Positions 42,654 through 49,360 of a stretch of DNA of 64,000 nt are shown here, one piece after another. Location: positions 496,001 to 560,000 of the forward strand of contig BRON01000002.1 in the NCBI GenBank assembly GCA_024345305.1. Reading direction: 5' to 3'. Position numbers and translations under genes: made by a program. The DNA is from Mrakia gelida (lineage: Eukaryota > Basidiomycota > Tremellomycetes > Cystofilobasidiales > Mrakiaceae). The stretch's first letter is position 1, and every line of letters starts with the position of its first letter. Under the pieces are notes generated by a model, which saw nothing but the letters and a program-made list of their open reading frames with translations, was not told the origin of the DNA and ran no database searches.

Positions 42654-43636
42654 TCAACTCCTCCACCTCAGATCCACCACCGTCCCCACCAGCATCAACC
42701 AGCTCTCCAACCACCTCAGCCCTTCACTCCTTTCCTCTGAGTCTCCCTTCTCCTCGGTTTTGATGATCTCCTCCAACGCCTCCTGGAGATGACAAGGGTG
42801 CAGAGCCCACACTCCCTGGCCCGTCGACGGGTGTTCTGCTTGGGCGAGCAATGGAAAGTCTGCTTCGTCGTCGTCGTCGTCTGCGAACTCTGGTGGCGGT
42901 GATGATGAGGATGGAAAGTCTTTGGTGGTGATGTTGTAAGAGGGAGTAGGGTTGGGGAGAGGGATAGAAGTCGCGTCGGAGGGGAGGGCTGAAGTCGAGG
43001 GAGGAGGCCGAACGATGTTGAGGGAGATGAGGAGAGGGAGGGAGAGTGGGGAGAAGGTCGCTGTAGGGTTAAGAGCCAAGGGAAGTATATCAGTGGTTGC
43101 TCTGGCGGATGCGAAGGCAGGAGAGATCGTACTGACTTCGCGAGTGAGCTTGGATCAAGAGCTGGGGAGCTCGATACGTCGGCGAGAAGACGATGTGGTG
43201 GATGACCGAGATGACCTCCCCTGGTATCGAAGGAAGTGCTGTAGTAGTTGAGGGATCCTCGTCTTCCTGTAAATCGTCCGGCGACGGCGAACGAGACCGG
43301 GGACGAGCAGGGGGGGAGGAAGGAAGGACGAGCGTTGAGCTTCGACGAAGGTAGCCGAACGTTGGTTGTTTCTTTTTGGACGAGGTAGATATGGAAGTCA
43401 GAGCGCTGAATACGACCGCAAACGGATGCAGAAGATCAGCGCACCGGGTGATCCATCCACGTCCATCCCGAGTTGGCGAGCGAAGACGAGAGCAAGGAGG
43501 AGGAAGGGGAGGAGGAGGAGGGAGGTTGCGCGGGTCGCGACGAGGACGAGAAGTCGACTCCCTCAGCCTTGTACTTCTCGACCAGTCCCTTTGCTGCCTC
43601 AGCAAAATTGGCATGGGATGGAAAGATAGGTGGCAT
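42654..43636 (-). CDS. ATG10: autophagy E2-like enzyme ATG10
   Basis: Conjugates Atg12 to Atg5 in autophagosome formation. Exon 1: MPPIFPSHANFAEAAKGLVE then SGWTWMDHP. An intron follows (donor gtgcgc, branch ctgac, acceptor ccaaaaag). Exon 2: KQPTFGYLRRSS, GEVISVIHHIVFSPTYRAPQ and LLIQAHS. Exon 3: SLPLLISLNIVRPP and GVWALHPCHLQEALEEI, where Cys of HPC is the predicted thioester residue. It ends VVDLRWRS. The GYL, HHIVFS-Y-P-L and W-x-LHPC pattern is specific to Atg10. Two introns. It is head to head with RPS1, and its 5' half lies in a 679-bp segment that recurs inverted at 48682-49360. Confidence 0.88.
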
Positions 43637-44013
43637 GGCGGTTTGAAGATGAAGAAAAGAGGAAGGAGAGCAAGCTGGGTTGTCAGGTGTGGGAAGCACA
43701 GTTTCAACTCGAAATCGAGCCGCCTCTTCTCAAGAGAGCCTTCCCTCGCATTTTCTCCCTCGTCTCTCATACGCATCATGGCTGTCGGAAAGGTTAGCCC
43801 TTCACACACGCTACAACATTCCTCCCCTCCCCTCCTTTCACACACACCTCCCCCGCCTTCGACGCTACCACCTCCCGAAGGAATGGCAAAATTTGGTGGA
43901 GAAGGAAGGGAGATAAAAGAGGCAGAAGGAGGGCGAAGGAAACGAAGGATGGCGAGGTGGTCGATGGGTTCGAGCTCGCAGAGAGGATGGAGGACGGGTT
44001 GGAACAGCACTGG
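43335..44013. repeat. 679-bp inverted repeat, original copy
   Basis: Spans part of ATG10 exon 2, ATG10 exon 1, the shared promoter, RPS1 exon 1 and most of RPS1 intron 1. Recurs as its reverse complement at 48682-49360 with the same length. Taken as the source because both flanking genes are intact here. Confidence 0.93.
43637..43777. promoter_or_regulatory. 141-bp bidirectional ATG10/RPS1 promoter
   Basis: Only 141 bases separate the start codons of ATG10 (minus) and RPS1 (plus). Rich in CT near RPS1 (CTTCTCAAGAGAGCCTTCCC, CATTTTCTCCCTCGTCTC). No TATA box. An intact copy lies inverted in the second repeat. Confidence 0.6.
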
Positions 44014-45524
44014 ACTGGGTATAGTTGGGAAGAGGACAGAGCTGACTATCTTTCCATCCCTTTTGATCCTATAGAACAAGCGTCTCTCTAAGGGCAAAAA
44101 GGGTATCAAGAAGAAGGTCGTCGACCCCTTCACCCGAAAGGGTGAGCTCTCCTCCTTCCTCCTCCAAAATCTCCCCTCACCTTCCCTTGGACACCTTCTC
44201 ACCTTCCCTCTCCTCTTCTTCATCTACCAGACTGGTACGACATCAAGGCTCCCTCCATCTTCGAGGTCAAGTCTGTCGGAAAGACCCTTGTCAACCGATC
44301 CCAGGGATTGAGTGCGTTCTCCCTCCCTTCCCTCCCTCCCTTCCTTCACCTCCCTCGAGGCCTCTGGTCTGACCCCATCTACCCTCTCCTCTTCCTCTCC
44401 CACTCGCAGAGAACGCCAACGACTCCCTCAAGGGTCGAATCCTTGAGCTTTCGCTCGCCGACCTCAACAAGGATGAGGAGCAGGCGTTCCGAAAGATCAA
44501 GCTGAGAGTTGACGAGGTCCAGGGAAAGAACTGTCTTACCAACTTCCACGGTGTACGTCCTATCTCTCTAGCATGCTTGGGTGGCTCGTAGGAGGCAGGG
44601 GACTTACTCGCTTTCTTTGGAATCGGCTCAACAGATGGACATCACCTCCGACAAGCTTCGTTCGCTCGTCAAGAAGTGGCAGACTTTGATCGAGGCTCAG
44701 GTCGACGGTTCGTTCTCCCTTCCCTCCACCTCTCGCCATCTCCTCGCCTCAACTGGAGCTCGAGCACCGAGCTGAGACCCTTCTCTTTCCTCTTGGTTCT
44801 GCTCTACAGTCAAGACCACCGACGGTTACCTCGTCCGACTCTTCTCCATCGGTTTCACCAAGAAGCGACAGGGTCAGGTCAAGAAGACCACCTACGCTCA
44901 GACTGCTCAGATCCGAGAGATCCGAGCCAGGATGATCGAGATCATGACCAGGGAGGCTTCCGCCGGAGACTTGAAGGAGTGAGTCTATCGTTCTTCGGTC
45001 TTCAGTTCGAGAAGGGAAAGCGGGAACGAGAGAGCTGACGACCTTCTTCCTCCTTCCTTCCCTTTCTCCTTCCTCAGGTTGGTTCAGAAGTTCGTTCCCG
45101 AGGCTATGGGACGAGAGATCGAGAAGGCCGCCCGAGGCATCTACCCTCTTTCGAACGTTATGACCAGGAAGTGCAAGAGTGAGTCCTATCGTTCCTTCGC
45201 GTCTCGACCTCGTTTGTGCTCGACCTCGTCGCGTTTCGTTCGCTGACCCTCTTCGCTTCGCGTCCCTCTTCCTTTTTCGCCACTCTCAGTTCTCAAGGCC
45301 CCCAAGTACGATCCTTCGAAGCTCCTCGAGATGCACGGAGAGTCGACCGACGAGGCTGGACAGAAGGTTGGAGGTGCTGAGGTTCGTCGCGTTTCTCCTC
45401 TCCCTTCCAACACGTCCGCTTCCCTTCCTCCCGAACCCAAAACTGACTCAACTTCCCTTCTCCTCGTCGCGTACTCGTTCTCGTTATGTAGTTCAAGGAG
45501 CCTGAGATCCTCACCTCCGTTTAA
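43778..45524 (+). CDS. RPS1: 40S ribosomal protein S1 (S3a/eS1)
   Basis: Cytosolic small-subunit protein. Exon 1 is 15 nt (MAVGK); a 300-nt intron then leads to NKRLSKGKKGIKKKVVDPFT, the invariant start of eS1. Later exons: DWYDIKAPSIFEVKSVGKTL, VNRSQGLKNANDSLKGRILE, LRVDEVQGKNCLTNFHGMDI and TSDKLRSLVKKWQTLIEAQV, then DGYLVRLFSIGFTKKRQGQV and IREIRARMIEIMTREAS. It ends EFKEPEILTSV. All motifs are conserved and the length is normal. Seven introns. The first intron is the longest, as often in fungal ribosomal protein genes, and most of it lies in the duplicated 679-bp segment. Confidence 0.96.
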
Positions 45525-48598: not shown

Positions 48599-48681
48599 AG
48601 AATCGACGAGGCTTCGAAGGAGAGGACGGGATCTGGGTAGACTTTTTGGGTTGGTTTGTTTCGAGATCGCATGGCTTTCTC

Positions 48682-49360
48682 CCAGTGCTGTTCCAACCCG
48701 TCCTCCATCCTCTCTGCGAGCTCGAACCCATCGACCACCTCGCCATCCTTCGTTTCCTTCGCCCTCCTTCTGCCTCTTTTATCTCCCTTCCTTCTCCACC
48801 AAATTTTGCCATTCCTTCGGGAGGTGGTAGCGTCGAAGGCGGGGGAGGTGTGTGTGAAAGGAGGGGAGGGGAGGAATGTTGTAGCGTGTGTGAAGGGCTA
48901 ACCTTTCCGACAGCCATGATGCGTATGAGAGACGAGGGAGAAAATGCGAGGGAAGGCTCTCTTGAGAAGAGGCGGCTCGATTTCGAGTTGAAACTGTGCT
49001 TCCCACACCTGACAACCCAGCTTGCTCTCCTTCCTCTTTTCTTCATCTTCAAACCGCCATGCCACCTATCTTTCCATCCCATGCCAATTTTGCTGAGGCA
49101 GCAAAGGGACTGGTCGAGAAGTACAAGGCTGAGGGAGTCGACTTCTCGTCCTCGTCGCGACCCGCGCAACCTCCCTCCTCCTCCTCCCCTTCCTCCTCCT
49201 TGCTCTCGTCTTCGCTCGCCAACTCGGGATGGACGTGGATGGATCACCCGGTGCGCTGATCTTCTGCATCCGTTTGCGGTCGTATTCAGCGCTCTGACTT
49301 CCATATCTACCTCGTCCAAAAAGAAACACCCAACATTCGGCTACCTACGTCGAAGCTCAA
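48682..49360. repeat. 679-bp inverted repeat, duplicate copy
   Basis: Reverse complement of 43335-44013, with no indel. Three mismatches were seen, all in the last 25 bases next to 49360; the rest looks identical by eye in all reading frames. Confidence 0.93.
48900..48917 (-). pseudogene. orphan RPS1 exon 1 in the duplicate
   Basis: ATGGCTGTCGGAAAG plus donor gttagc on the minus strand, downstream of a complete copy of the RPS1 promoter. There is no RPS1 exon 2 beyond it: the strand leads into the SES1 3' end in antisense orientation. Confidence 0.8.

What the first reader, a model, noticed from the sequence alone, without database searches (positions are those of the whole stretch)
43335..49360. 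679-bp inverted duplication of the ATG10/RPS1 promoter region flanking RPS1 and SES1
43335-44013 and 48682-49360 are reverse complements of equal length with no indel. The only mismatches I see are three in the 25 bases nearest the ATG10-coding end. The arms enclose 4.67 kb holding RPS1 and SES1. The segment carries ATG10 exon 1 and part of exon 2, the bidirectional promoter and RPS1 exon 1. Near-identity means a recent event or ongoing gene conversion; the clustered edge mismatches look like a conversion-tract boundary. No transposon ends or target-site duplications are visible. Recombination between the arms would invert RPS1-SES1.
Basis: seen in the sequence. Interest (0 to 1): 0.8.

Follow-up and report, generated by a model that had tools for sequence, protein, structure and literature searches.

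The report
Flipped promoter copy beside RPS1-SES1
In a cold-loving yeast, a 679-letter piece holding the shared start region of two genes has been copied, upside down, about 5 kb away and is still almost identical, so that two housekeeping genes now sit between mirror-image arms; it is a neat but ordinary kind of local duplication.

Summary
The repeat is real and exact: 43335-44013 and 48682-49360 are reverse complements, 679 nt, no indel, 3 mismatches, and the only two copies found in the 34.86-Mb genome. The genome fits Mrakia gelida MGH-2 (inferred). Arm A lies between complete ATG10 and complete RPS1. Arm B is a derived copy in the spacer between SES1 and a convergent putative F-box gene, carrying only 5' fragments of ATG10 and RPS1. 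Introns are kept, so it is a DNA-level copy; flanks are unique and no target-site duplication was found. The mismatches lie 14, 26 and 32 nt from the outer edge, all at third codon positions of ATG10 exon 2; Q66 (as in M. frigida) and rare codons in B suggest that B changed. Best reading: break repair with a templated inverted insertion, recent or later kept alike by conversion. A one-step staggered-break inversion cannot give this gene order. Flipping the interior in silico leaves RPS1 intact. In 340 kb surveyed, 1 of 13 repeat alignments (this one) reached 95% identity over its whole length. A new instance of a known kind of rearrangement; age, empty site and any functional effect are untested.

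The parts
43335..44013 (+). Arm A, original copy: ATG10 exon 1, intron 1 and first 37 nt of exon 2 (minus strand), the 141 nt between the two start codons, RPS1 exon 1 and 221 nt of intron 1
48682..49360 (-). Arm B, derived inverted copy; truncated 5' ends of ATG10 (pointing right) and RPS1 (pointing left, towards the 3' end of SES1)
42654..43636 (-). ATG10, exons 43636-43445, 43371-43137, 43060-42654; 277 aa
   Evidence: gene model; PF03987 E 1.9e-18; Mrakia frigida homologue at 79% identity over 78% of the query
43778..45524 (+). RPS1 (eS1), 9 exons, 257 aa; exon 1 (43778-43792) in arm A, exon 2 (from 44075) outside it
   Evidence: all 7 protein matches in the genome lie at this locus
45833..48599 (+). 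SES1, cytoplasmic seryl-tRNA synthetase, 15 exons, 460 aa
   Evidence: model; PDB match; Pfam
43348..43366 (-). The three mismatches between arms (43348, 43360, 43366), all third codon positions of ATG10 exon 2
49059..49383 (+). Truncated ATG10 reading frame begun in arm B (exon 1 49059-49250, exon 2 from 49324); spliced model 83 aa, stopping shortly past the arm; no Pfam match at E up to 0.01
48600..49563 (.). Convergent spacer between SES1 and the putative F-box gene: 82 nt + arm B + 203 nt
   Evidence: SES1 stop; stop of the minus-strand gene read by eye at 49566-49564. F-box domain (PF00646, 3.9e-7) is in the frame 52019-52723; frames 49648-50967 and 50252-51421 had no Pfam match, so that all belong to one gene is inferred

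Best explanation
A break in the spacer downstream of SES1 was repaired by copying about 679 bp from the ATG10/RPS1 divergent promoter region, 4.7 kb upstream, in inverted orientation, and joining it back: a templated inverted insertion. Shown: copy number as far as the search reaches, direction of derivation (arm A joins both complete genes, arm B is truncated), DNA-level copying (introns retained), clean edges. Inferred: the break and the repair route. The arms have stayed identical over the inner 647 nt either because the event is recent or because arm-arm gene conversion keeps them alike except at the outer edge. Arm-arm crossover should flip the 4.67-kb interior without harm to RPS1, SES1 or ATG10, because each arm carries all DNA between the two start codons, RPS1 exon 1 and its 5' splice site; that a flip happens is inferred, not seen.
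For: Two copies found in the genome. ATG10 and RPS1 complete at arm A; arm B lacks their remainder. ATG10 intron 1 and most of RPS1 intron 1 present in both arms, against a retrocopy. Flanks of arm B had no second match in the genome; no target-site duplication found. Arm B changes Q66, which M. frigida keeps as Q, and has CTA (0 of 87 Leu codons in ATG10, RPS1 exons 1-8 and SES1) and ACA (2 of 54 Thr codons) where arm A has CTT (16) and ACG (9). In-silico flip keeps the 257-aa RPS1 reading frame (ATG10 and SES1 were not re-read, as they lie wholly outside or inside the flipped piece). Of 13 repeat alignments of 80 bp or more in 340 kb, only this pair reaches 95% over its length (11 in C2; 2 in C1).
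Against: The empty site was not seen, as no related strain's DNA was reached, so junction microhomology and recency are not shown. The foldback insertions measured at yeast breaks are mostly about 5-34 bp (PMC11724301, start of abstract and passages), far shorter than 679; how long distant insertions get was not looked up. All three changes on third codon positions is a 1-in-27 oddity for an unconstrained copy. Within the U3 repeat of this window a 141-nt block is also 99% identical, so near-identity of a block is not unique here, though there it is an RNA gene.
Confidence: 0.6

Rival explanations
1. An older inverted duplication kept identical by gene conversion; the outer 32 nt escape conversion and show the older divergence (3 of 32). 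This is about upkeep and can be combined with either origin.
For: 0 of 647 mismatches inside against 3 of 32 at one edge. Placed at random, all three fall in the outer 32 nt of either end with probability 1.9e-4, or within a 19-nt span anywhere with 0.0019 (the 32-nt cut was chosen after seeing the data).
Against: The inner edge is identical up to the last base. Three mutations made at once by error-prone repair synthesis would look the same. No relative to date the event.
Confidence: 0.25
2. Inversion by staggered single-strand breaks, as at Drosophila inversion breakpoints, followed by a second flip between the arms.
For: That mechanism leaves originally single-copy DNA as inverted duplicates flanking the inverted segment (PMC3355041, passages).
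Against: Its direct product would put RPS1 beside arm B and SES1's 3' end beside arm A. Here arm A abuts both complete genes, so one extra flip is needed.
Confidence: 0.12
3. Assembly artefact.
For: Raw reads were not available here; short-read polishing can misbehave in near-identical repeats (general knowledge).
Against: The paper for the matching assembly reports PacBio at 230x from libraries with 20 and 30 kb minimum fragment cut-offs, longer than the 6-kb structure (PMC9872599, whole text). The arms are separated by 4.67 kb of unique sequence and arm B has unique flanks, unlike a foldback read artefact, and the arms differ at three places.
Confidence: 0.04

Closest known systems
Templated and inverted insertions at double-strand breaks in yeast (PMC11724301, start of abstract and passages; PMC10622511, search listing only)
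   Same: Inverted copy of nearby or distant DNA inserted at a break
   Different: Foldback insertions described there are mostly 5-34 bp and adjacent to the break; here 679 bp from about 4.7 kb away
Inverted duplications at Drosophila inversion breakpoints made by staggered breaks (PMC3355041, passages)
   Same: Originally single-copy DNA as inverted duplicates flanking a segment
   Different: Order of genes here does not fit a single such step
Human polymorphic inversions mediated by inverted repeats, with recurrence (PMC3961182, passages)
   Same: Near-identical inverted arms able to flip the segment between them, in several cases without expected harm to genes
   Different: No inverted isomer has been observed here; arms are short and one is a partial copy of a promoter region

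Membership tests
Local inverted segmental duplication | Two near-identical inverted copies of otherwise single-copy host DNA on one chromosome | tested here: met
Templated insertion at a break | Complete donor locus elsewhere, truncated copy at insertion site, no target-site duplication | tested here: met
Templated insertion at a break | Empty site in a relative, with microhomology or end-joining junctions | not testable with these tools
   the genome tool holds no relatives of this genome; a protein search with the reading frame that spans arm B found nothing
Staggered-break inversion (single step) | Each arm abuts only one of the two separated genes | tested here: not met
   arm A abuts both complete genes
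Retrocopy / processed pseudogene | Introns removed | tested here: not met
   ATG10 intron 1 and 221 nt of RPS1 intron 1 present in both arms
Transposon or transposon-borne copy | Target-site duplication, or multicopy flanks | tested here: not met
   no transposon library was searched
Recurrent inversion by inverted repeats | Both orientations found in the population | not testable with these tools
   one assembly only

The most novel reading that the evidence does not exclude
Arm B is a working second copy of the RPS1/ATG10 divergent promoter set into a convergent spacer; it drives antisense RNA into the 3' ends of SES1 and of the F-box gene and so ties a tRNA synthetase to ribosomal-protein control, while the arms let the RPS1-SES1 block flip back and forth unnoticed.
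Probability: 0.06. Interest if true: 0.5.

Novelty: new member of a known kind. Interest (0 to 1): 0.25.

Why it matters
It is a clean example of host promoter DNA copied in inverted orientation close by, around two housekeeping genes (in other yeasts SES1 and, as a function, eS1 are essential; recalled). It gives a natural substrate for measuring arm-arm conversion and silent inversion in a basidiomycete yeast, and a case for asking what happens when a ribosomal-protein promoter lands between two convergent genes.

Tried and rejected
Rejected: retrocopy (introns kept); transposon carriage (flanks without a second match, no target-site duplication; no transposon library searched); a known RNA gene in RPS1 intron 1 as the reason for copying (19 Rfam matches at E up to 5 in 43200-49600, none at its gathering score; no match to any of 4227 families at gathering score in the window; intron fold z-score 0.19); one-step staggered-break inversion (gene order). 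The other long near-identical repeat of the window is a U3 snoRNA gene family, not a sister event.

Led nowhere: a protein search with the reading frame that spans arm B and both junctions scored 7988 candidates, none at E up to 10, which says little, so presence in other strains stays unknown; a 42-nt arm pattern had 0 matches in viral contigs, where fungal DNA was not expected. Genome contigs (bacteria and archaea) was not scanned, and metagenome contigs allowed no scan. A scripted SES1 splice search failed and was replaced by introns picked by eye and checked by homology. Paper searches with 0 papers: emerin/filamin inversion terms, Mrakia plus inverted duplication. A search on inverted-repeat recombination rates and one on promoter duplications gave nothing used here.

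Full report
Observation. The two stretches are reverse complements over 679 nt save for three mismatches at 43348, 43360 and 43366. Homology ends sharply on both sides. Two places in the whole genome match the arm, both here (the tool scores best candidates only). RPS1 matches only this locus, and the 4668-nt interior has three other matches, of 37 to 78 nt.

Organism. The genome has 34,857,517 bases in 25 contigs. The ATG10 protein's best match, of two found, is a Mrakia frigida protein at 79% identity over 78% of the query. A paper on Mrakia gelida MGH-2 reports 25 scaffolds, 34.9 Mb and 55.7% GC, PacBio 230x and Illumina 176x, FALCON-Unzip and Pilon (PMC9872599, whole text); the window is 55.5% GC. 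I infer that this is that assembly.

Anatomy. ATG10 (minus strand) is complete to the left of arm A, with the active-site domain PF03987 at E 1.9e-18. RPS1 starts in arm A and continues rightwards, PF01015 at 3.3e-78. The arm runs from 37 nt into ATG10 exon 2, through intron 1, exon 1 and the 141 nt between the start codons, to RPS1 exon 1 and 221 of 282 nt of RPS1 intron 1. SES1 follows (460 aa; best PDB match 3qne, named cytoplasmic seryl-tRNA synthetase). Splice sites were picked by eye and supported by homology. Arm B lies 82 nt after the SES1 stop and 203 nt before the stop, read by eye, of a putative F-box gene on the other strand. The F-box match (PF00646, 3.9e-7) is in the frame 52019-52723, while two frames nearer to arm B had no Pfam match; that they are one gene is inferred. 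Without arm B the spacer would be about 285 nt. In arm B the RPS1 fragment points at SES1 and the ATG10 fragment at the F-box gene. The ATG10 fragment would encode 83 aa with no Pfam match.

Which copy is old. Arm A joins both complete genes, so arm B is the copy. The mismatches agree: they are the third positions of ATG10 codons 66, 68 and 72. Codon 66 is Q in arm A and in M. frigida, H in arm B; the second homologue does not cover this position. Arm B has ACA and CTA where arm A has ACG and CTT; in ATG10, RPS1 exons 1-8 and SES1 together ACA is 2 of 54 Thr codons and CTA 0 of 87 Leu codons. That all three are third positions has a chance of 1 in 27 if arm B drifted freely, and is left unexplained.

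Mechanism. Introns are retained, which excludes a retrocopy. No exact target-site duplication of 6-14 nt was found within 15 nt of arm B's ends, and neither flank of arm B has a second match, which speaks against a transposon; no transposon library was searched. Staggered breaks with inversion (PMC3355041, passages) would leave RPS1 beside arm B; the observed order needs a second flip. A templated inverted insertion during break repair needs one event, and I give it 0.6. The inner junction is ambiguous, because CCAGT stands twice in tandem at the arm A edge and once in arm B (sequence printed), so microhomology cannot be settled without an empty site.

Identity and its edge. Zero of 647 inner positions differ (95% upper bound 0.46%), three of the outer 32 do. 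Random placement of three changes would put all of them in the outer 32 nt of either end with probability 1.9e-4, and inside a 19-nt span anywhere with 0.0019; the cut was made after seeing the data. Conversion that spares the edge, or three errors made at once in repair synthesis, both fit.

Flip. In silico, turning the interior round keeps the complete 257-aa RPS1 reading frame, now started from arm B. As the arms are identical to their inner ends, SES1 also keeps the same next 761 nt downstream (82 + 679), apart from the three mismatches, and ATG10 lies outside the flipped piece. So both orientations should be viable (inference). Whether both exist is not known. In a human study of inversions between inverted repeats, 11 of the 16 that could be analysed showed signs of recurrence (PMC3961182, passages).

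How unusual. Self-comparison by BLAST (E up to 1e-10, low-complexity filter on, rows under 80 bp dropped) gave 11 alignments in 260 kb of C2, 2 in 80 kb of C1 and none between the two, together about 1% of the genome. One of the 13, this pair, reaches 95% identity over its length; the other 12 lie at 67-85% over 84 to 2259 bp, four of them inverted. Within the U3 snoRNA repeat (85% over 778 bp) a 141-nt block is 99% identical.

Verdict. A real, well-defined local inverted duplication of promoter DNA, of a known kind, with modest interest. A functional role is possible and untested.

Noticed in passing
15620-16372 and 36727-37485; third copy in L005 (C2:1318357-1318777): Three copies of a U3 snoRNA-like gene, with a possible intron near the 5' end (read by eye). 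Rfam Fungi_U3 at 15941-16181, E 3.1e-10, 46.8 bits, below the gathering score of 95 (nothing at gathering score). Long core stretches are identical in the three copies while the supposed intron and the flanks differ.
   Followed up: partly
4473-9133: Tandem pair of related genes in direct orientation, 67% DNA identity over 2.26 kb; they look like quinone-oxidoreductase-type genes (recalled, not tested).
   Followed up: no
C2:490490-492475 (L015) and C2:573975-575943 (L017): A 2-kb direct repeat of 80% identity on either side of the window; not identified.
   Followed up: no
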